Part shown: positions 25,965-37,698 of the stretch, piece by piece
How positions within the stretch are numbered: position 1 is the stretch's first letter
Layout: the number at the start of each line of letters is the position of its first letter
DNA from: Saccharothrix sp.
GTDB lineage: Bacteria > Actinomycetota > Actinomycetes > Mycobacteriales > Pseudonocardiaceae
Direction of reading: 5' to 3'
NCBI RefSeq assembly: GCF_031180885.1
Contig: NZ_JAPSLK010000038.1
Coordinates: 1 to 64,000, forward strand
Length of the DNA stretch: 64,000 nucleotides
The notes under the pieces: model-generated
The model's input: the letters and a program-made list of their open reading frames with translations, nothing else
What the model was told of the DNA's origin: nothing
Databases searched by the model: none
Made by a program: the position numbers and the translations under genes

Positions 25965-26537
25965 TTGACGGCGGACGAGGCCATCGACGTGCTGCGGCTG
26001 CTGTGGGCGGGCGGCGAGGAGGGCACCGGGTCTTCGGAGTAGCCCTCCTCGTTGCGGCCCCAGCGCGGGTCGCGCAGCGGGTTCACCACGGGCGCCCGCA
26101 CGTTGAGGGCGTGAGCCACGCGGGGGAGTTCTTCGCGTTCGAGGCCCTGTGCAGCTTCCCCAAGCCCCACAACGCCGATCGCGTCCCGGTCCACGTGGGA
26201 GGGTCCAGCCGCGCGGCGGCGCGCCGGGCCGGGGCGCGGTGACGGGTACTTCCCCGGTGGCGCGCTGGTGCCGGACGAGCGCGCGGCCCGGTGGGCGCTG
26301 GTCCGGGTCACGGCGGAGGCCGCGGGGCGTGACCCGGGGGTGTTGGAGTACACGCGGTGGGGGTCGATCGAGATGTCCGTCGAGCAGGTCGAACGGTACG
26401 CGGCCGAGGGCGTGACGCGGGTCGTGGTGAGCGCGACGAGCGCGGACCCGGCGGAGCAGCGGGACCAGCTGTCGGCTTTCGCGGAGCGGTTCGCCCCGGG
26501 CGGCCGGGCGAGCGGTCCTCGTGTTAGCTCTGCGTGA
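25965..26537 (+). pseudogene. LLM-class F420-dependent oxidoreductase relic
   Basis: Pieces of one luciferase-like (LLM) F420-dependent oxidoreductase can be read in order: TADEAIDVLRLLWAGGEEG (25968-26024), then FFAFEALCSFPKP..VPVHVGGSSRAAARRAG (about 26128-26236, another frame), then GDGYFPGGALVPDERAARW to the natural C-terminus at 26537 (third piece, first frame). The N-terminal half is missing, frames change, and a ~90-base foreign piece with a GH3 motif separates the first two parts. It is clearly non-functional. Confidence 0.7.
26028..26118 (-). pseudogene. GH3 glycosidase splinter inside the LLM relic
   Basis: On the minus strand this ~90-base piece encodes NVRAPVVNPLRDPRWGRNEE followed by GYSEDP, a hallmark of family 3 beta-glucosidases/xylosidases. 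The flanks on this strand are antisense to the LLM relic, so only the splinter is foreign. It is too short to function and indicates patchwork recombination. Confidence 0.6.
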
Positions 26538-26645
26538 TTGGGCTGATCGGGCTAGTGCTTTACGACCTCGCACCAGGCAGTGTTCTCCGCTGATCGAGTT
26601 GGCGTGGCGGCGGACCGCCGCCTGTGTACGGGGGGCTTCATCCAA

Positions 26646-29600
26646 GTGGTGCCGGTATTTGGCGTGCGCGGAATCAGACGGGTGGCCGCGTTGGCGGCTC
26701 TCGTCGTGGGGTTCGGGGTGGTGCAGCCGGCGTGGGCCGTGGCGGCTCCCGAGCCGGTGGCGGTGGTGGACGAGGCGCCTGACGAGGCTCGGGCGCAGGC
26801 GCTGGCCAAGCAGCTCGGGCGGTCGGTGCGGATCACCGGCAAGACCACCGAGACCGACGAGTTCTGGGCCACGCCGGACGGCGGGTTCACCTGGCGGCAG
26901 CACCAGCGGCCGGTCCGGGTCAAGCGCGACGGGCAGTGGACCGCGGTCGACACCACGCTGGTCAAGCGCGCGGACGGCACCATCGCGCCCAAGACCACCG
27001 TGGTCGACCTCGCCTTCTCCGGCGGCGGAAAGGGCACGCCCCTGGCCAAGATGGCGCACGGCGGCGCGGAGATCGGCCTGACCTGGGCCTCCGACCTGCC
27101 CGAACCGGTCCTGGACGGGCCGAGCGCGACCTATCCCGAGGTGTTCCCGGGCGTAGACCTGAAGGTCACCGCGGACGTCATCGGGTTCTCCGAGGTCCTG
27201 GTGGTCAAGACCCCGGAAGCGGCGCGGAACCCCCAACTGCGCAAGGTGACCTTCGGGTCCCACACCAAGAACACCAAGGTCCGCACCGCCGCCAAGAAAA
27301 CCGCCGCGGACCCCGGCCTTGAGGTCGTGGACGCCGACGGCGCGGTCCGGTTCACCGGCGACGCCACCCGGATGTGGGACTCCAGCGGTGACGGCGAGGT
27401 CGGCCGGCGCACCGCGGTGATGGTCGCCGAGGTGACCCCGGAGAGCGTCACCATCATCCCGGACCAGGAGTTCCTGCGGCACAAGGACACCAAGTTCCCG
27501 GTGTACCTGGACCCGGACTACTCCTGCGGCTCCTGCGGCAAGGCCCACCACGTGGTGGTGCAGTCCGGCTACCCGACCGCGCGGAACTTCGACGCCTGGC
27601 AGGGCGACCTCGCCGACCTCAAGGCCGGCTACCAGAACTCCGACTCCTCCGGCGTCTCCCGCTCCTACGTGCAGATGAACACCGGCGCCGTGAAGTGGAA
27701 GAACATCCACTGGGCGACCCTGAACACCACGCTCAACTACTCCTGGTGGGGAGCGGGCAGCGCCAAGCCGACCGAGGTCTACCTCTCCGGCTGGATCGAC
27801 GGCAACACCACCTGGAACAACCAGCCCGGCGCGGGCACCTTCCAGTCCTCCAGCAACGTGACCAACCAGTCCAAGGCCCCGAACGTCTCCATGCAGTTCG
27901 ACGTGACCGGCGCCGTGCGCTCCGCGTCGGCGGGCGGCTGGGACCTCACCACGTTCCTGCTCAAGGGCGAGCAGGAGGGCAACACGTACTCGTGGCGGCG
28001 CTTCGGGCTCAACCCGTACCTGGAGACCCACTACAACTCCACGCCGAACAACCCGTGGAGCCACTCGATGCAGAACGGCACCCTGCCGTGCGTCAAGGGT
28101 GAGAACCGGCCGTGGGTGGCGACCCGCACGCCGCAGCTGCAAGCCTGGGTGTCCGACCCGGACGGTGGCGGCCTGGAGGTCATGATCGCCACCAGCGGCG
28201 GGCCGTACGGCGCGGACGTGCCCGGCACGTACTTCGACAACGCCAACTCCCGGCCGTACATCGGCACACCGGGCGCCAACCAGGGCGCGCTCGCCCAGGT
28301 CGCCGTCCCCAGCGGGTGGATCAACTCCGACGGCATCTACAAGTGGGCCATGAAGGTCTACGACGGCGAGGCATGGTCACCGCGCTGGGACTGGGACTGC
28401 GAGTTCTTCGTGGACGCCACCCCGCCGCTCGCGCCGGTCACCAGGCCGACGAACACCCCGGCCAACCAGGGTGACATCGCCACCTTCGACATCAGCGTCG
28501 ACATGGCCACGGCGAACCTGTACGACATCGACCGGTTCGTCTACACCCTCGACGGCAGCGAACCGTCCACCCAGGGCTCGCCGTCCGTGCAGGCCGGCCG
28601 CAAGGACGAGAACGGCAAGATCACCGCGACCGCCCAGCTGTCCACCACGGCCCGCAACGCCAACCAGAACCTGCTCAAGGTCCGCGCGGTCAACAAGGCC
28701 GGCACGCCCGGCCCCAGCGGCTCGTGCGTCGCGCCGCTGACCACCGTCGGCACCGCGCCCAACACCGCGTGCGCCTACGTCGTCCAGCCGTTGACCTCGG
28801 CGAAGTACCTCAAGGGTGCCTGGGCGCTGGACGACCAGTTCGGCACCACCGCGGCCGACAACGTCGCCACCCTCAACCCCGGCCAGACCGCGCACCCGGC
28901 CACGCTCGGCGGCAGCGCCGGGTGGAACGTCGGCCACAACCGCGGCAGCTCGTGGACCCAGGCCGACGCGTTCGGCGCCAAGGACGGCGTGAAGGGCGGC
29001 CTCCAGTTGGCCGACAACGGCTACGCGGCCACCGCGCAGCCGGTCGTGGACACCACGCAGTCGTTCAGCGTCTCCGCGTGGGCCATGCTGAACCGGACCG
29101 ACAGCTACTACACCGTCGCCTCGCAGGACGCGGGCACGGTCAGCGGCTTCTACCTCCAGTTCTCCCACGACGTCGGCAAGTGGTCGTTCTCGACCACCAA
29201 CAGCGACGCGGTCAGCGACACCGCCAACCGCGCCACCTCCGCGGACGGCTCGGCCGCGCCCGCGCTCGGCGTGTGGACCCACCTCGTGGGCACCTACGAC
29301 GCACCGGCCAAGCAGCTCTCCCTCTACGTCGACGGCAAGCTCGCCGGCACGAAGGTCATGGCGAACCCGCTGTTCCCGGCGACCGGTCCGTTCGTGATCG
29401 GCGGCGCGAAGTGGTCGGGCAACCGGGCCGACTTCTTCCCGGGCAAGATCGACGACGTCCAGGCGTGGCAGCGGGTGCTGTCCGCGCAGGACGTGCGCGA
29501 CCTGGCGGGCGTGTCGACCTCGCGGGTCACCCTCGGCCTCGCCGAGGGCGCGGCGGAGAAGCTGGCCACCGGGGCGACCGGTGACGAGTTCTCCGGCAAC

Positions 29601-30914
29601 TACGTGCCCGCGCCGGTGAAGTCGTTGCAGGGCTTCTGGAAGTTCGACGAGGGCACCGGCACCACGGCCGCCGACTCCAGCAACAACGGCGCCGGCTACG
29701 ACAACAACCTGATCACCACCGGCGCGACGTGGGTGCCCGGCAAGTCCGGCTCCGCCCTGCGCTACGCCGGCACGTCGGACAGCTCCAGCCGCTCCGCCGG
29801 ACCCGCCGTGAACACCGCGCAGTCCTTCACGGTGTCCGCGTGGGTGAAGCCGGACGACCTGAACGGCTACTACGGCGTGGTCGGCCAGTCCGGCACCAAC
29901 GTGCCCGGCTTCGCGATCCGGTACTCGCCGGACGTCAAGGCGTGGATCTTCGGCCTGAACACCGAGGACCGCGCGGGTGCCGAGACCCAGTGGGCGTGGG
30001 GGCCAGGTCCCGCGAAGACCGACTGGACGTTGGTCACCGGTGTCTACAACAACGACACCAAGCGCATCCAGCTCTACCTCGACGGCCGGCTGGTCGCCTC
30101 GCGCCCGTTCACCGGCACCCCGTGGAACGCGGCTGGCAAGGTCACCGTGGGCACGTACGACTTCGGCTCGCCGACCCACTTCTTCAAGGGCAGCATCGAC
30201 TCGGTCCAGCTGTGGCAGCAGGCGCTGACCGCGAGCCAGGTCGCCGCGCTGGCCGGTCTGTCCTATGTAGACTCTGCCTGGCACGTCGACGGCCACTGGT
30301 CGGCGACCGCGACCGGTGACGTGTCCCTGGTGACCGACTCCGACGCGGCCTACGCCCGGTTCCAGCCCACGGCGGGCACCGCGCTGACCGTGCCCCGTGC
30401 GCAGGACTTCCGCACCGACCGGTCCTACACGGTGGAGGCATGGGTCAAGCACGACGCGACCAACACCATGACCAAGTCGGCGGTGAGCGTCGACGACACC
30501 ACCAACGGCCCGTTCTCGCTGGGCTACCGCAAGGACGACCAGACCGAGGGCAAGTGGTCGCTGGTCGTGCCGTGCACCCGGGACCAGGCGAACTGCCTGA
30601 AGTACGCGTGGAGCGACGCCGCGGCCGAGAACGGCAAGTGGACGCACCTGGCCATGACCTACGACCGGGCCACCGGCACGGCGTGCCTGTACGTCAACGG
30701 CCAGAAGCAGTCCGGGTGCATCACCGACGTCCCCGCCTACGACGGCAACGGGACGTTGACCCTGGGCAACTTCAAGTGGGGCGGCAACGCGGTGGACCAG
30801 TGGCACGGCGGCATCGCCGGCGTGCGCGTGCACAGCGGTGTGCGGACGGTCTCCCAGATCCAGGACGACCGCACCGCCGACGACCCGGGCGCCCTGTTCG
30901 GCGCCGTCCACTGA
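26646..30914 (+). CDS. Giant secreted LamG/DNRLRE-domain protein preceding RHS
   Basis: This ~1422-residue protein begins with a signal peptide (VAALAALVVGFGVVQPAWAVA). After an N-terminal beta region, a DNRLRE-type domain at about 285-470 carries SWWGAGSAKPTEVYLSGWI and WNNQPG. Ig-like regions follow, then three laminin-G/concanavalin-like domains at about 720-960, 995-1205 and 1215-1415, each with the (A/V)W(A/V) jelly-roll and VDGK/LYVNG strand patterns. Such proteins regularly precede RHS genes in actinomycetes and probably help display or deliver them. The start is uncertain (tandem GTGs at 26646 and 26649); a G-rich site lies about ten bases upstream. Confidence 0.85.
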   Translation: MVPVFGVRGIRRVAALAALVVGFGVVQPAWAVAAPEPVAVVDEAPDEARAQALAKQLGRSVRITGKTTETDEFWATPDGGFTWRQHQRPVRVKRDGQWTAVDTTLVKRADGTIAPKTTVVDLAFSGGGKGTPLAKMAHGGAEIGLTWASDLPEPVLDGPSATYPEVFPGVDLKVTADVIGFSEVLVVKTPEAARNPQLRKVTFGSHTKNTKVRTAAKKTAADPGLEVVDADGAVRFTGDATRMWDSSGDGEVGRRTAVMVAEVTPESVTIIPDQEFLRHKDTKFPVYLDPDYSCGSCGKAHHVVVQSGYPTARNFDAWQGDLADLKAGYQNSDSSGVSRSYVQMNTGAVKWKNIHWATLNTTLNYSWWGAGSAKPTEVYLSGWIDGNTTWNNQPGAGTFQSSSNVTNQSKAPNVSMQFDVTGAVRSASAGGWDLTTFLLKGEQEGNTYSWRRFGLNPYLETHYNSTPNNPWSHSMQNGTLPCVKGENRPWVATRTPQLQAWVSDPDGGGLEVMIATSGGPYGADVPGTYFDNANSRPYIGTPGANQGALAQVAVPSGWINSDGIYKWAMKVYDGEAWSPRWDWDCEFFVDATPPLAPVTRPTNTPANQGDIATFDISVDMATANLYDIDRFVYTLDGSEPSTQGSPSVQAGRKDENGKITATAQLSTTARNANQNLLKVRAVNKAGTPGPSGSCVAPLTTVGTAPNTACAYVVQPLTSAKYLKGAWALDDQFGTTAADNVATLNPGQTAHPATLGGSAGWNVGHNRGSSWTQADAFGAKDGVKGGLQLADNGYAATAQPVVDTTQSFSVSAWAMLNRTDSYYTVASQDAGTVSGFYLQFSHDVGKWSFSTTNSDAVSDTANRATSADGSAAPALGVWTHLVGTYDAPAKQLSLYVDGKLAGTKVMANPLFPATGPFVIGGAKWSGNRADFFPGKIDDVQAWQRVLSAQDVRDLAGVSTSRVTLGLAEGAAEKLATGATGDEFSGNYVPAPVKSLQGFWKFDEGTGTTAADSSNNGAGYDNNLITTGATWVPGKSGSALRYAGTSDSSSRSAGPAVNTAQSFTVSAWVKPDDLNGYYGVVGQSGTNVPGFAIRYSPDVKAWIFGLNTEDRAGAETQWAWGPGPAKTDWTLVTGVYNNDTKRIQLYLDGRLVASRPFTGTPWNAAGKVTVGTYDFGSPTHFFKGSIDSVQLWQQALTASQVAALAGLSYVDSAWHVDGHWSATATGDVSLVTDSDAAYARFQPTAGTALTVPRAQDFRTDRSYTVEAWVKHDATNTMTKSAVSVDDTTNGPFSLGYRKDDQTEGKWSLVVPCTRDQANCLKYAWSDAAAENGKWTHLAMTYDRATGTACLYVNGQKQSGCITDVPAYDGNGTLTLGNFKWGGNAVDQWHGGIAGVRVHSGVRTVSQIQDDRTADDPGALFGAVH

Positions 30915-30946
30915 CCCCCGCCGCGACCACACCACAGGTGAAGCAC

Positions 30947-33900
30947 ATGAGACGCAGCACCCTTGCGACCTCCGTCGTGACGGCGGCCTTGATGCTGGTG
31001 GGCACCGTCACCGCGAGCGCCGCGCCGGCCAAGAAGGGCTGGCACGGCCTGGGCTGGGACCTCCCGGCCCTCCAGCAGACCGAATCCGTGCCCGGGACGG
31101 CCGACCAGCCGCGCCCGGCGCCCGAGAGCGAGACCCGCTCGCTCGCCACGCCGCCGGAGGTGCGGCTGCCCGAGACCGGCAAGGTCGAGGTCGACCTGGC
31201 GCCGGTCGGCGCGGGCACCCGCACCGCCGCCGTCGCCGCCGGGAAGTCCGGGCTGGCGCTGGGCCGCGGTCAGGGCAAGGCGGGTCGCGCGCCGGACGGC
31301 CGGGGCTCGGCGAGCCGGGCCGCGGGCAAGGTCGAGGTGGAGTCCCTCGGCCTGCGCGACGGCCGGGCGCTCTACCGGGTCAGCCCGAAGTCCGGTGACA
31401 CGTCCGGCCCGATCACGGTCCGGCTGGACTACTCCGGGTTCGCCGAGGCGTTCGGCGGCGACTACGGCCGCCGGTTGCGCCTCGTGTCCTACCCGGACTG
31501 CCTGCTGTCCACACCGGACAAGCCGGAGTGCAACGTCGCCACGCCGGTCGAGCACACCAACAAGGACAAGGCGCTGGTCGGTGAGACCACGCTGACCTCC
31601 GCGACCGTGCTGGCGGCGTCCGCCGAGGGCGACAGCGGCTCCGGCGACTACACCGCCACCCCGCTCTCCCCATCCGGCACTTGGACCGCCGGCGGCGCGT
31701 CGGGTTCGTTCACGTACGACTACCCGATCAAGCTGCCCGCCGCGCTGGGCGGCACGACCCCGGCGCTGTCGCTGTCGTACTCGTCGGCCACCGTGGACGG
31801 CGCGACCTCGGCCACCAACAACCAGCCCTCGTGGATCGGCGACGGCTGGACGCTGGCCGCGGGCGGGTTCGTCGAGCGCTCCTACAAGCCGTGCGCACTG
31901 GACCTGGGCGGCAACAACGGCCAGACCAAGACCGGCGACCTGTGCTGGGCGTCCGACAACGCCACCATCTCCTACGCCGGCCGCAGCACCGTCCTGGTCA
32001 AGGACACCGCGACCGGGAACTGGCGGCCCCGCAACGAGGACGGCTCGCGCGTGGAGCGGCTGACCGGCGCGGCCAACGGCGCCCGGGACGGCGAGCACTG
32101 GAAGGTGACCACGCCCGACGGCACGCAGTACTTCTTCGGCCTCAACCGCGTCCCGGGCTGGGCGGCGGGCAAGCCGGAGACCCAGTCGACGTTCACCGCG
32201 CCGGTCTACGGCAACCACGGCGGCGAGCCGTGCAACCAGGCCACGTTCGCCGCGTCGGCGTGCACCCAGGGTTGGCGCTGGAACCTCGACCACGTCGTGG
32301 ACACCCACGGCAACGCGGTCGTCTACTACTACCAGCCGGAGATCAACGCCTACGGCCAGAACATGAACGTCACCACCGCGGGCACCTCCTACGTGCGCGG
32401 CGGCCACCTGCTGCGCATGGAGTACGGGCTGAACGCGGCGGCCGGCGGCAACTTCGCCCAGGCGCCCGCCCGCGTCCTGTTCGACACCGCCGAGCGCTGC
32501 GTGCCCGGCGGCGCGGTGACGTGCGACCCGGGCCAGCTGAACACCTCGACGGCGAGTTCGTGGCCGGACGTCCCCGCCGACCGCCTGTGCGCGCCCGGCG
32601 CGGTGTGCAAGAACGTCGCGCCGTCGTTCTTCACCCGCCGCAAGCTGACCACCATCACCACCCAGGTGGCCAACGGGTCCGGCGGCTGGCTGGACGCCGA
32701 CCGGTGGGCGCTGGCCCACTCGTTCCCGGCCACCGGCAGCGGCGACAGCCCGTCGCTGTGGCTGGACAGCGTCACCCGGACCGGTCTCGCCGGCGGCAGC
32801 GCCTCGCTCCCGCCGACCACGTTCGGCGGCACCGCCAAGAGCAACCGGACGCTGGCCTCGCAGAACTACACCAGCCTGTCCCGCTACCGGATCACCGCGA
32901 TCACCGGCGAACTCGGCGGCACCACCACGGTCACCTACTCCGAGCCGGACTGCCAGTCGGGCACCCCGGATCCGGCGACCAACACCACCCGGTGCTACCC
33001 GGTGCACTGGACACCCGCCGGCGCGACCGACCCGGTCCTCGACTGGTTCAACAAGTACGTCGTCACGGACGTGCACACGGACGGCCGCACGACCCTGGGC
33101 CAGCAGACCCGCACGCACTACGACTACCTCGACGGCGGCGCCTGGCACTTCGACGAGAACTTCTTCCAGGAGGCCAAGTACCGGACGTGGTCGCAGTGGC
33201 GCGGCTACGGCGTGGTCAAGACGACCCTGGGCAACCCGGGCGATGCGGCCGGGCCGCGCACGGTGACCCAGACCCGGTACCTGCGCGGCATGGACGGCGA
33301 CAAGGCGGCCTCCGGCACCAGGTCCGTCACGGTCGCCAACTCGCTCGGCGAGAACACGACCGACGGCGACCAGTACTCGGGTTTCGCCCTGGAAACGCTG
33401 TCCTACTTGGACGGCAACGTCATCACGGCCACGCTCAACGACCCGTGGTCCTCCGGCGCGACCGCCACCGACGCCAACGGCGTCAAGGCCCACCACGTCG
33501 GCACGGGCGTGACCCGCAGCCGGGTGTGGCTGGCGGCGTCGAACAAGTGGCGCACGTCCCGCACGACCACCACCTTCGGTGACCACGGCCTGCCCACGCA
33601 GGTGCAGACCGAGGGCGACGTCGACGACGCGGCCCAGACCTCGTGCACCCGCACGGAGTACGCGGCCAACACGAGCACGTGGCTGCTCACCCTGCCCAAG
33701 ACGGTGCAGAAGGTGTCCGGCCCGTGCACCCAGGCCAACGCCGCGAGCAGCGCGAACATCATCTCCGAGGTCCGCACGCTCTACGACGGCCAGGCCCACG
33801 GCGTCGCGCCGACCCGGGGCGACGCGACCGAGGTGCACATGCTGTCCGACTGGCCCGCCGGCGGGTCGGCGGTGTTCCAGACGCCGAGCGTCAAGACCGG

Positions 33901-36900
33901 CTACGACACCGTCTACGGCCGGGTCGTGTCGGTGTCCGACGCGCTCAACCGCACCACGACGACCACGTACACGCCGGAGACCGGCAGCCCGGTCACCAAG
34001 ATCGTGACCAACGCCCCGCCGGTCACCATCGCGGGCGTGGCGACCTCGCTGACGACCGTGGACGAGATCGACCCGGCCAGCGGCGTGGTCACCGGCAAGG
34101 TCGACCGGTCGGGCCTGCGCACGGACCTGGCCCACGACCCGCTGGGCCGGCTCACCGCGGTCTGGAAGCCCGGCCACACCAAGGGTTCCTCGCCCGCCGA
34201 CGCCACCTTCGCCTACACGGTCAACACGGCCTCGCCGAGCGTCGTGACGTCCAACCGGCTGCTCGCCTCCGGCCAGTACGCCACCAGCTACGCGCTGGTC
34301 GACGGCCTCGGCCGGACCGTGCAGACCCAGTCGCCGACCCCGTACGCGCAGGGCGGCCGGGTGGTCACCGACACCCTGCACGACTCGCAGGGCCGGGCGT
34401 GGAAGTCCCACCAGCAGTACTGGAACAGCGCCGCCCCGGAGCCGTCGCTGCTGGTCGTGCAGGACAACGCGGTGCCCGTCACCACGGTGACCGAGCACGA
34501 CTCGGCGGGCCGGCCCACCGCGGTGATCACCCTGCACGACGGGGTGGAGCTGAAGCGGACCACGACCGCCTACGACGGCGACCGGGTCACCACGGTCCCG
34601 CCGCCCGGCGGCACCGCCTCGGCGGTCGTCACCAACGGCCTGGGCCAGAAGGTGAAGACCCTCCAGTTCAAGGACCGGGCGCGCACCGGCCCCGCGGACC
34701 CCGCCGACACCACCACCTACACGTACCTGCCGTCCGGTCTCCAGCACACGGTCACCGACAGCACGGGCGCCAACAAGTGGACGTTCGGCTACGACCTGCT
34801 GGGCCGCAAGACCACCCAGACCGACCCGGACGCGGGCACCACCACCACGACCTACGACGCCGCCGGCCAGGTCGTCAAGACCACCGAAGGCCGCGGCAAG
34901 GCGCTCGCGTACACCTACGACGCGCTGGGCCGCAAGACGGCGATGTTCGACACGTCGACCGCCGGCCTCAAGCTCGCGAGCTGGACGTACGACACCAAGC
35001 TCAAGGGCAAGGAGACCAACGCGGTCCGCTTCGACGGCGGCAAGGCCTACGTGCGCGCGGTGTCCGGGTACGACGAGGCCGGTCGGCCCACCGGCACCAC
35101 CGTGGTCATCCCGACCAGCGAGGCCGGGATCGGCGGCACGCACTCCTTCCCCGTCACCTACAACCCGAACACCGGGGCCGTCGCCACGGTCAGCTCGCCC
35201 GGCGTGGGCGGCCTGCCCGCCGAGACGATCTACCGCGGCTACGACGCCCTGGGCTACCCCACGGAGTCGTTCGCGGCCAACGGCAACGGCGGCACGAAAC
35301 TGGTGTCGCTGACCCAGTACAACCCGTTCGGGCAGGTGCTGCGGCTGAACCTGGCCGACGCGAACAACCCCAAGCAGGTGTCCGCGACCCACACCTACGA
35401 GGGCGCCACGAACGAGTTGGCGTCGGCGATGGTCGTGCGGTCCACGGCCACCGACCAGGTCGTCGCCAACCGGGCGTACACGTACAACCCGGCCGGTGAC
35501 ATCACCCGGATCGGGGACGTCGACGACACCCAGTGCTTCGGCTACGACTACCTGCGCCGGCTGACGTCGGCGTGGACGCCGGGTTCGGGCGACTGCTCGG
35601 CGGCGGCCTCGGTGGCCGGGCTCGGCGGCGTGGCGCCGTACTGGACGGACTGGTCCTACGACGTCACCGGCAACCGGGTGGAGCAGGTCAAGCACACCGC
35701 GGCCGGCGACACCAAGACCAAGATCGACTACCCGGCACCGGGCTCGCCCCGGCCGCACGGGGCGACGACGGTCACCACCACCGGCCCCGGCGGCACCACC
35801 TCGGCGACCTACGGCTACGACGCGGCGGGCAACACCAACGCGCGCCCGGGCCACTCCCTCGACTACAACGCCGAGGGCCACGTGGCCGTCGACACCGACA
35901 CCGCCACCGGCAAGCCGACCCGCTACCTGTACGACGCGGACGGCAACCGCCTCATCGCGCGGGAACCGTCCGGCACCACCCTGTACGCGGGCGACGTCGA
36001 ACTGTTCGTCCCGGCCGGCTCCACCACGGCCACCGGCACCCGGTTCTACACCCACGGCGGCAAGAACGTCGCCCGGCGGACGTCGGCCGGTCTGGTGTGG
36101 ACGGTCGAGGACCACCAGGGCACCGGCACCGCGTCGGTCGACGCGGGCACCCTCGCCGTCACCCGCCGCCACCACGACCCGTTCGGCGTCGGCCGCGGCA
36201 CCCCGCCGTCGTCGTGGCCGGACCGGCACGGCTTCATCGGCGGCGTGCAGGACGCGTCGGGCACGGTCCACCTCGGGGCGCGGGAGTACGACCCGACCCT
36301 GGGCCGGTTCACCGCGGTCGACCCGCTGCTGAAGCAGGACAACCCGCAGCAGTGGAACGGGTACTCCTACGCCAACAACAACCCGGTCAACCTGACCGAC
36401 CCGGACGGCACCGAACCCCGCGGCGGCCCCTGCTACAACGTGCCCGGCCACGGCTGGATGCGCAGCGACGGCTACCCGTGCGCGGGCGCGGGCGACGACA
36501 AGCCGTGGATGAGCTGCAGCGCCTGCGGCAACGCGCCGCACACGGTGAAGCACCCGCAAGGCAAGCCGGAGTACGGCTCCGACCAGGCCAAGCACAAGCC
36601 GTACCGGAAGCTGTCGGTGCTGGAGGCCGGGCTGGCGGCGCACGACATCAACGCCCGTCTGGAGCACATGGGGCTGGTCGGGACCGCGGTGTGCGTCCGC
36701 TACGAGCTGACCTGCGAGTTGTTCGGGCACTGGGCGGGCAGGTCGGGTAGTGACTACATCCTGCGGCCCGACCAGATGGACCAGCTGATGGTGGACGACA
36801 ACTGGAAGGGCACCCGGGAGGAGCCGATCAACACGTTGAGCGCCATGGCGGCGGAGAAGTGCGCCGGGTCGGCGAACTGCACGGTCAACCTCGACAGCGG

Positions 36901-37186
36901 TTGGCTGAAGGCGGTCGTGGACTCCACCACGGACAACAAGCTCGCCTTGCAGAGCATCGAGTACCGCATCTCCGGCCAGGTGACCGTCACCCAGGAGAAC
37001 GGCGGCGGCACCCGGGTGCGCGGCGCGGTCACCGTGGACCTGATCAAGGACTACAACTTCGACGAGGGCAAGACCGTCGCCGGGGTCTACGATCTGACCT
37101 ACCTGTCCCAAATGCCGGCCGCCGGTCTGGCCCAGGACTTCGTGGTCCGGGGCAGTCAGACCTTGACCATCGACCGGAGTCGTTAG
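30947..37186 (+). CDS. RHS/YD-repeat polymorphic toxin-like protein
   Basis: A 2079-residue exported protein. Its signal peptide ends TVTASA, and an N-terminal secretion/SpvB-like segment follows. RHS/YD repeats (YDALGRKTAM, YDLLGRKTTQ types) form the cage from about residue 980 to 1750. The RHS core ends with the conserved junction GAREYDPTLGRFTAVDP and YSYANNNPVNLTDPDG (about 1775-1820). Beyond it is a unique ~260-residue tip rich in Cys early on (CYNVPGHGW, CSACGN) with FGHWAGRSGSDY and a beta-rich end. By analogy with RHS toxins this tip is the candidate effector. A TAGTG overlap couples it to the next gene. Confidence 0.9.
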   Translation: MRRSTLATSVVTAALMLVGTVTASAAPAKKGWHGLGWDLPALQQTESVPGTADQPRPAPESETRSLATPPEVRLPETGKVEVDLAPVGAGTRTAAVAAGKSGLALGRGQGKAGRAPDGRGSASRAAGKVEVESLGLRDGRALYRVSPKSGDTSGPITVRLDYSGFAEAFGGDYGRRLRLVSYPDCLLSTPDKPECNVATPVEHTNKDKALVGETTLTSATVLAASAEGDSGSGDYTATPLSPSGTWTAGGASGSFTYDYPIKLPAALGGTTPALSLSYSSATVDGATSATNNQPSWIGDGWTLAAGGFVERSYKPCALDLGGNNGQTKTGDLCWASDNATISYAGRSTVLVKDTATGNWRPRNEDGSRVERLTGAANGARDGEHWKVTTPDGTQYFFGLNRVPGWAAGKPETQSTFTAPVYGNHGGEPCNQATFAASACTQGWRWNLDHVVDTHGNAVVYYYQPEINAYGQNMNVTTAGTSYVRGGHLLRMEYGLNAAAGGNFAQAPARVLFDTAERCVPGGAVTCDPGQLNTSTASSWPDVPADRLCAPGAVCKNVAPSFFTRRKLTTITTQVANGSGGWLDADRWALAHSFPATGSGDSPSLWLDSVTRTGLAGGSASLPPTTFGGTAKSNRTLASQNYTSLSRYRITAITGELGGTTTVTYSEPDCQSGTPDPATNTTRCYPVHWTPAGATDPVLDWFNKYVVTDVHTDGRTTLGQQTRTHYDYLDGGAWHFDENFFQEAKYRTWSQWRGYGVVKTTLGNPGDAAGPRTVTQTRYLRGMDGDKAASGTRSVTVANSLGENTTDGDQYSGFALETLSYLDGNVITATLNDPWSSGATATDANGVKAHHVGTGVTRSRVWLAASNKWRTSRTTTTFGDHGLPTQVQTEGDVDDAAQTSCTRTEYAANTSTWLLTLPKTVQKVSGPCTQANAASSANIISEVRTLYDGQAHGVAPTRGDATEVHMLSDWPAGGSAVFQTPSVKTGYDTVYGRVVSVSDALNRTTTTTYTPETGSPVTKIVTNAPPVTIAGVATSLTTVDEIDPASGVVTGKVDRSGLRTDLAHDPLGRLTAVWKPGHTKGSSPADATFAYTVNTASPSVVTSNRLLASGQYATSYALVDGLGRTVQTQSPTPYAQGGRVVTDTLHDSQGRAWKSHQQYWNSAAPEPSLLVVQDNAVPVTTVTEHDSAGRPTAVITLHDGVELKRTTTAYDGDRVTTVPPPGGTASAVVTNGLGQKVKTLQFKDRARTGPADPADTTTYTYLPSGLQHTVTDSTGANKWTFGYDLLGRKTTQTDPDAGTTTTTYDAAGQVVKTTEGRGKALAYTYDALGRKTAMFDTSTAGLKLASWTYDTKLKGKETNAVRFDGGKAYVRAVSGYDEAGRPTGTTVVIPTSEAGIGGTHSFPVTYNPNTGAVATVSSPGVGGLPAETIYRGYDALGYPTESFAANGNGGTKLVSLTQYNPFGQVLRLNLADANNPKQVSATHTYEGATNELASAMVVRSTATDQVVANRAYTYNPAGDITRIGDVDDTQCFGYDYLRRLTSAWTPGSGDCSAAASVAGLGGVAPYWTDWSYDVTGNRVEQVKHTAAGDTKTKIDYPAPGSPRPHGATTVTTTGPGGTTSATYGYDAAGNTNARPGHSLDYNAEGHVAVDTDTATGKPTRYLYDADGNRLIAREPSGTTLYAGDVELFVPAGSTTATGTRFYTHGGKNVARRTSAGLVWTVEDHQGTGTASVDAGTLAVTRRHHDPFGVGRGTPPSSWPDRHGFIGGVQDASGTVHLGAREYDPTLGRFTAVDPLLKQDNPQQWNGYSYANNNPVNLTDPDGTEPRGGPCYNVPGHGWMRSDGYPCAGAGDDKPWMSCSACGNAPHTVKHPQGKPEYGSDQAKHKPYRKLSVLEAGLAAHDINARLEHMGLVGTAVCVRYELTCELFGHWAGRSGSDYILRPDQMDQLMVDDNWKGTREEPINTLSAMAAEKCAGSANCTVNLDSGWLKAVVDSTTDNKLALQSIEYRISGQVTVTQENGGGTRVRGAVTVDLIKDYNFDEGKTVAGVYDLTYLSQMPAAGLAQDFVVRGSQTLTIDRSR

Positions 37187-37698
37187 TGCCCTCGAAGGCC
37201 CGTTGGATCACCGCCGCCGCGCTCACGGGTGCGGCGGCGGTGATCGCCACCGTCGTGCTGTACCCGAGCCACGACCCGAAGGCGTACCCGGGCAGCCGGT
37301 CGGGGTTCTCCTTCGAAGAGGCGCAGCAGCAGGCGTCGGTGCCCCTGCCGGGGTGCGCGCAGGAGACCGCCCGGTTCTACCTGGGGCCCGGGTTCGCCGA
37401 CAGCACGATCGTCATGGACTTCACCGCCGGCGACGAGTGCGTGGAGAGCTTCCTGGCCGGCGTCGGGATCGACGGGTCGACGCCGGTCGTGCAGTGGAAA
37501 CCGGTGTTCCAGGAGAGCGGACCGCCGGTCGAGCCGCCTACCGGGTCGGGCATCACCTGGGAGTTCCCGCGCACGGACCGGGTGGAGTACTGGACCGTCG
37601 AGCGGACCGACGGGGTGAACGACCAGTCGGTGCTGGTCGTGGTGAACCGATCCGCCCGGCCGCAGCACGTCTACATCCGGGCGTTCCCGGCGGATTAG
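37186..37698 (+). CDS. Membrane-anchored small protein, candidate immunity protein to the RHS tip
   Basis: This 170-residue protein starts at GTG 37186, which shares one base with the RHS stop codon (TAGTG), so the two are co-translated. Residues 5-25 (WITAAALTGAAAVIATVVLYP) form one N-terminal membrane segment or uncleaved signal. The rest is an extracytoplasmic domain with two cysteines and beta-strand patterns. No family is recognised. Coupling to the end of an RHS gene, small size and a unique sequence are what immunity proteins show, but no experiment supports it. Confidence 0.7.
   Translation: MPSKARWITAAALTGAAAVIATVVLYPSHDPKAYPGSRSGFSFEEAQQQASVPLPGCAQETARFYLGPGFADSTIVMDFTAGDECVESFLAGVGIDGSTPVVQWKPVFQESGPPVEPPTGSGITWEFPRTDRVEYWTVERTDGVNDQSVLVVVNRSARPQHVYIRAFPAD

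What the first reader, a model, noticed from the sequence alone, without database searches (positions are those of the whole stretch)
36410..37698. Unrecognised RHS C-terminal tip with a TAGTG-coupled membrane-anchored partner: candidate new toxin-immunity pair
After the canonical RHS junction the last ~260 residues match no toxin fold I know; Cys-rich and FGHWAGRSGSDY segments precede a beta-rich end. The next gene starts inside the RHS stop codon and encodes a 170-residue protein anchored by one N-terminal helix. That is the position and size of an immunity protein, and the anchor implies neutralisation on the outer face of the membrane.
Basis: partly seen in the sequence, partly recalled or inferred. 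Interest (0 to 1): 0.74.

Follow-up and report, generated by a model that had tools for sequence, protein, structure and literature searches.

The report
RHS toxin tip with membrane-anchored immunity
The end of a large secreted bacterial surface protein is a swappable, probably toxic module whose predicted shape resembles the cell-wall-attacking bacteriocin colicin M, and the small membrane-anchored protein encoded right behind it is very probably its antidote; relatives of this pair occur in several bacterial phyla but carry no name in the family libraries searched.

Summary
A 2079-residue RHS protein with a signal peptide (30947-37186) ends in a 260-residue tip; a 170-residue, one-helix protein (37186-37698) starts on the last base of its stop codon. 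The tip is polymorphic: three related LamG+RHS cassettes (76-78% DNA identity) stop matching at 36402, 36403 and 36409 and have unrelated tips. Tip and partner travel together: both recur, adjacent, on a different RHS protein (G014) and on a non-RHS secreted protein (G486). G016 keeps only the partner at the same locus. The tip belongs to a domain family that no searched library names; one scan gave 50 loci from several phyla. In 35 of 50 a gene of one lipoprotein-type family follows directly; the window partner is a distant member by profile comparison. The AlphaFold2 model points to the colicin M (lipid II hydrolase) fold: the first 14 Foldseek and first 11 VIA rows are all of it, but TM-scores are low (at most 0.37) and Z stays below 8. 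Best reading: a colicin-M-like toxin acting outside the cytoplasm, probably on lipid II, with an outer-face immunity protein. In the window's tip Lys replaces the family's Asp at the presumed catalytic position, so its chemistry is open. Nothing was tested at the bench.

The parts
26580..30914 (+). Upstream LamG (Laminin_G_3, three stretches) / DNRLRE protein; inherited together with the RHS gene in three related cassettes
   Evidence: Pfam PF13385 E 1.6e-74, NCBIfam NF033679 E 1.6e-11; cassette DNA homology begins at window 26666 in G002 and G001 and at 27156 in G017, where the fetched stretch starts. Start codon not verified.
30947..37186 (+). RHS protein, 2079 aa, signal-peptide-like N-terminus, SpvB region, YD repeats, RHS core, variable tip
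36380..36409 (+). RHS core / tip junction (NPVNLTDPDG), the recombination boundary
   Evidence: DNA homology of the cassettes in G001, G017 and G002 ends at 36402, 36403 and 36409
36410..36559 (+). Variable, Cys-rich linker of the tip (tip residues 3-52), low model confidence in part
   Evidence: residues 29-48 have pLDDT under 50
36560..37183 (+). Toxin domain with predicted colicin-M-like fold (tip residues 53-260); K215-D216-Y217-N218-F219-D220 lies where most relatives have D-R-Y-N-W-D
   Evidence: Family searches, AF2 model, Foldseek and VIA, column counts
37186..37698 (+). Partner, 170 aa, proposed immunity protein; GTG start on the last base of the RHS stop; Cys57/Cys85 pair shared with the G014, G016 and G486 homologues, both absent in G009
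37204..37260 (+). N-terminal hydrophobic anchor helix of the partner (residues 7-25)
   Evidence: Hydropathy; helix 3-23 in the model, which was numbered from residue 2

Best explanation
The RHS protein is exported through its signal peptide and carries a swappable C-terminal toxin domain with a distant colicin-M-like fold. The toxin reaches the envelope of neighbouring cells and acts on the outer face of the cytoplasmic membrane, most likely on lipid II or another undecaprenyl-linked precursor. The 170-residue partner, translationally coupled to it and anchored in the membrane with its domain outside, binds the tip and protects the producer. Shown here: gene anatomy, tip swapping at the junction, recurrence of tip and partner side by side on unrelated carriers, and membership of both in families that sit next to each other in many genomes. 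Predicted: the colicin-M-like fold. Inferred: delivery, toxicity, target, binding.
Confidence: 0.62

Rival explanations
1. Same toxin-immunity pair, but the tip does not hydrolyse lipid II. It acts on the envelope without the colicin M aspartate: by binding and sequestering lipid II, by cleaving another bond, or by perturbing the membrane.
For: Lys at the Asp position in the window, G014, G486 and two further members (5 of 71 rows), and Pro for His238 in the window, G014 and G486, while gene, domain and adjacent partner stay intact in those three. PMC5821083 (passages read) reports degenerate motifs in other ColM domains and possible lysis by a pectocin M1 mutant that no longer degrades lipid II.
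Against: Tyr217, Asn218, His109, Gly115 and the AGLAQ segment are retained in the window, so an altered but catalytic site is possible.
Confidence: 0.35
2. The resemblance to colicin M is only a common alpha/beta arrangement, and the tip is an envelope toxin of unrelated fold and chemistry.
Against: The 14 top Foldseek rows and 11 top VIA rows are one family; in VIA they stand clear of row 13; the conserved DxYN falls at the expected place counted from the aligned end.
Confidence: 0.22
3. The tip is a degenerate, inactive passenger and the partner a leftover immunity gene.
For: Residues kept by most of the family (Asp215, His238, Trp178, Gly183) are replaced in the window's tip.
Against: Open frame with GC3 0.954 (partner 0.953, RHS core 0.982); G014 and G486 share the changes at 215 and 238 and have an adjacent intact partner.
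Confidence: 0.08
4. The partner is a chaperone, export or anchoring helper for the RHS tip, not an immunity protein.
For: Coupled start codon; membrane anchor.
Against: Partner kept without toxin at the syntenic G016 locus; extra copies in L057, L060 and L075; it goes with the tip, not with the carrier.
Confidence: 0.07

Closest known systems
Colicin M family (ColM, PF14859): colicin M, PaeM, syringacin M, pectocins M
   Same: Predicted fold (low-scoring); Tyr of the DxYD motif and its approximate distance to the C-terminus; a membrane-anchored periplasmic immunity protein (Cmi) as a precedent
   Different: No sequence-level match; DXYDX5HR not met in any of 71 rows; carrier is a secreted RHS protein of an actinomycete; Cmi was not compared with the partner
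DUF3289/DUF943 type VI effector pair (PMC11148199, passages read, part of the abstract included)
   Same: Earlier case of an unnamed domain recognised as colicin-M-like by Foldseek, toxic in the periplasm and neutralised by the next gene
   Different: No DUF3289 hit in the Pfam scans; DUF3289 sequences were not fetched or compared
Colicin-M-fold toxin with BamE-like membrane-anchored immunity (PMC12419801, passages read)
   Same: Polymorphic toxin with colicin M fold and membrane-anchored immunity
   Different: The immunity fold described there is a helix hairpin followed by three strands; the partner model here is helix-strand-strand-helix-strand-strand after the anchor. Sequences not compared, so overlap is not excluded
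TelC/TipC, lipid II phosphatase of a type VII secretion system (PMC5555719, passages read)
   Same: Toxic when exported, not in the cytoplasm of E. coli; cleaves lipid II; TipC inhibits it
   Different: Carrier is LXG; no sequence or fold comparison made here
RHS polymorphic toxins (survey PMC3482391, passages read)
   Same: RHS core, junction, swapped tip, immunity gene next
   Different: Scaffold is ordinary; the survey names Imm65 as the only lipoprotein immunity protein in its 2012 collection, with a different toxin

Membership tests
RHS polymorphic toxin system | RHS/YD repeats and RHS-associated core ending at a DPxG junction | tested here: met
RHS polymorphic toxin system | C-terminal tip varies while the core is conserved | tested here: met
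RHS polymorphic toxin system | Immunity gene directly downstream that protects | tested here: inconclusive
   Position and recurrence with the tip met; protection needs experiment
Colicin M family (PF14859) | Sequence match to the family model | tested here: not met
   No PF14859 hit in Pfam scans of the window tip and relatives. One search found none in 60 genomes, but its 14 control genomes were silent too, so it adds nothing
Colicin M family (PF14859) | Colicin M catalytic-domain fold | tested here: inconclusive
Colicin M family (PF14859) | DXYDX5HR motif | tested here: not met
   0 of 71 rows have it; window K-D-Y-N-F; position 215 Asp in 66 of 71, 217 Tyr in 69, 218 Asn in 64
Colicin M family (PF14859) | Hydrolysis of lipid II | not testable with these tools
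   Needs biochemistry
Lipoprotein-type immunity family defined here | Directly downstream of the toxin domain on the same strand | tested here: met
Lipoprotein-type immunity family defined here | Profile similarity over the mature domain | tested here: met
   hhalign 91-96%; 74.7%, score 34.9, without the anchor; shuffle maximum 19.6 of 200. Direct hmmsearch missed the window partner
Lipoprotein-type immunity family defined here | Cysteine after the signal stretch (lipobox position) | tested here: not met
   28 of 31 aligned rows have it; the window, L049 and L060 do not. The alignment left out 3 of the 33 canonical genes (L047, L055, L073)
DUF3289 | Match to the Pfam model | tested here: not met
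   Not among the hits

The most novel reading that the evidence does not exclude
The window's subclade (window, G014, G486) is a colicin-M-fold toxin that works without the colicin M catalytic aspartate, replaced by lysine. It attacks lipid II or another envelope target by a mechanism not known for this fold, within a cross-phylum toxin and lipoprotein-immunity family that the searched libraries do not name and that is shared by RHS, WXG100, peptidoglycan-binding and LysM carriers.
Probability: 0.33. Interest if true: 0.75.

Novelty: new variant of a known kind. Interest (0 to 1): 0.56.

Why it matters
It joins unnamed C-terminal domains of RHS, WXG100, peptidoglycan-binding and LysM proteins into one toxin family with one lipoprotein-type antidote family. 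It gives a testable target (lipid II at the outer membrane face) for bacterial antagonism in actinomycetes and other phyla, and it poses a clear question: how a colicin-M-like fold works, or whether it works, when the aspartate at the presumed catalytic place is a lysine. It would let annotators name a toxin domain and its immunity gene where no library searched here has a name.

Full report
What is there. The window comes from an actinomycete, probably of the family Pseudonocardiaceae: same-family genomes hold sequences that also come from named Actinokineospora and Streptoalloteichus records (L021 with L046, L025 with L048; lineages). A LamG/DNRLRE protein (26580-30914) is followed by a 2079-residue RHS protein with a signal-peptide-like start (30947-37186) and, overlapping its stop by one base, a 170-residue protein with a single N-terminal helix (37186-37698). 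Neither the last 260 residues of the RHS protein nor the small protein has a significant match in Pfam, NCBIfam, PHROGs or PADLOC.

The tip is swapped. Matches to the window's RHS core occur in 22 of 25 genomes of the genus, 53 matches in all. The three nearest (G017, G001, G002; core 70-73% by blastp) share the LamG+RHS cassette with the window at 76-78% DNA identity, and the homology ends at window positions 36403, 36402 and 36409. Their tails have no blastp match to the window tip at E 10. Tails were read for 30 of the 53 matches, the window's own and one short stub included; the best other match to the window tip is L116 at E 0.018.

The pair moves as a unit. The tip's nearest relatives are in G014, at the end of a 2729-codon frame that is RHS-like by eye and whose core the window's core did not match, and in G486, at the end of an 1185-codon coiled-coil protein with a signal-like N-terminus, not RHS by eye (Pfam was not run on these two carriers). 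In both the next gene on the same strand is a homologue of the window partner: a lipoprotein-like one about 100 nt on in G014, and a single-helix one overlapping by 4 bp in G486. Partner homologues also occur alone. In G016 (57.5-59% identity) the gene sits at the same locus between the same neighbours, while window 26502-37211, which holds the LamG and RHS genes, has no counterpart there, and no such RHS core was found in that genome. In G009 a 41-43% homologue stands alone, and G009 and G019 hold frame-broken pieces. Two cysteines (57 and 85) are shared by the window, G014, G016 and G486 partners and both are missing in G009, which fits a disulfide in an exported domain.

The family is wide. 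A 3-row profile of the tip matched 32 of 297 genomes of the taxonomic family (three of them are the profile's own rows), but only 1 of 396 in a phylum-wide sample, and the single sequence matched 3 of 60 relatives. A pattern-based scan of genome contigs gave 50 loci from Actinomycetota, Pseudomonadota (for example Luteimonas, Sphingomonas, Aquabacterium, Undibacterium), Herpetosiphon and other Chloroflexi, and MAGs labelled cyanobacteria, Acidobacteria, Planctomycetota and Lentisphaerae; MAG labels can be wrong. In 48 of the 49 loci examined at most 57 residues follow the match (L095 was not given, and in L076 the match runs past its frame). The exceptions are the giant frames noted below. Ten carriers were scanned against Pfam: WXG100 in two (one under the curated cut-off), PG_binding_1 in two, subtilase with LysM plus CHAP or GH19 in two cyanobacterial MAG proteins (one LysM under its cut-off), and nothing convincing in four. 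L084 and L092 have RHS-type cores by pattern and eye, as do G523 and G615. Signature segments are DxGxGxHGS, HYLxNSG, DWFYAxGG, FDRYNWDxGK and LHxAGLAxEY.

The antidote family. Of the 50 loci, 35 have a directly downstream frame that matches one profile at E 0.01 or better. Thirty-three of these built the profile; with sequences of 40% identity or more to the test case left out, 32 of 33 were still found, and the one miss (L049) appears to come from my position filter. Among 4752 frames, five hits at E 0.05 were not adjacent to a toxin domain: further copies in L057, L060 and L075, one weak piece in L071, and the G009 orphan (L011, E 0.0049). By the first start codon in frame, 32 of 33 lie within 50 nt of the toxin gene and 13 overlap by 4 bp; 28 of 31 aligned rows have a cysteine right after the hydrophobic stretch, the window not among them (three of the 33 were left out of that alignment). 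The other 15 loci lack a profile match: some end at contig edges and several have other small secreted proteins next. In three further loci (L030, L033, L036) the next gene is a 112-residue ESX-like protein. The profile does not hit the window partner directly at E 10, though it hits the G014 (E 0.0012) and G009 homologues. The partner's 4- to 5-member family aligns to it along the whole length: hhalign 91-96%, 74.7% without the anchor, scores 44 and 34.9 against a maximum of 19.6 in 200 column shuffles.

The main problem. In 71 aligned rows (distinct sequences, some from the same protein reached by two searches) position 215 is Asp in 66 and Lys in 5: the window, G014, G486, L041 and L042. 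Position 238 is His in 65 of 71 and Pro in the window, G014 and G486. The colicin M motif occurs in none of the 71. So the window's subclade has lost residues that its own family keeps, while the gene, the domain and the adjacent partner are retained. Either its chemistry differs, or it acts without catalysis, or it is weak; sequence alone cannot decide.

Literature. Colicin-M-like precedents: DUF3289/DUF943 (PMC11148199, passages), a colicin-M-fold toxin with BamE-like immunity (PMC12419801, passages), and TelC/TipC (PMC5555719, passages). PMC3482391 (passages) has no mention of colicin M or lipid II in the held text and names one lipoprotein immunity protein, Imm65. I could not tie any of them to this family; supplements were not searched.

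Verdict. The fold is probably a known kind, seen here in an unnamed, cross-phylum family with its own lipoprotein-type antidote family. No experiment has been done.

Noticed in passing
L133, L134 (G691, G565); also L028, L029, L031, L034, L035: One genus (g281) has open frames of 5,752 to 29,663 codons with one or two copies of this toxin domain in mid-protein instead of at the end; the two stretches read look like ordinary multidomain protein.
   Followed up: partly
L057 7313-7822, L060 5306-5752, L075 7875-8444: Further copies of the immunity-type gene near the first, as seen at other polymorphic toxin loci.
   Followed up: no
L030, L033, L036 just after the toxin frame: A conserved 112-residue ESX-like protein overlaps the toxin gene by 4 bp where the immunity gene would be expected; the immunity gene was not located.
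   Followed up: no
window 26580-30914: The LamG/DNRLRE protein gene goes with the RHS gene as one cassette in three relatives, and both are missing together at the G016 locus, so it may be a surface or delivery partner.
   Followed up: partly
L065 3457-6624, L080 3880-6609: MAG proteins labelled cyanobacterial combine subtilase, LysM, and CHAP or GH19 domains with this toxin domain at the end.
   Followed up: no
L041, L042: Two further, divergent family members also have Lys at the colicin M aspartate position, so the change may have arisen more than once.
   Followed up: no
window 30737-37111, minus strand: A 2124-codon open frame antisense to the RHS gene; taken, without a test, as a by-product of very high GC at third positions.
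   Followed up: no
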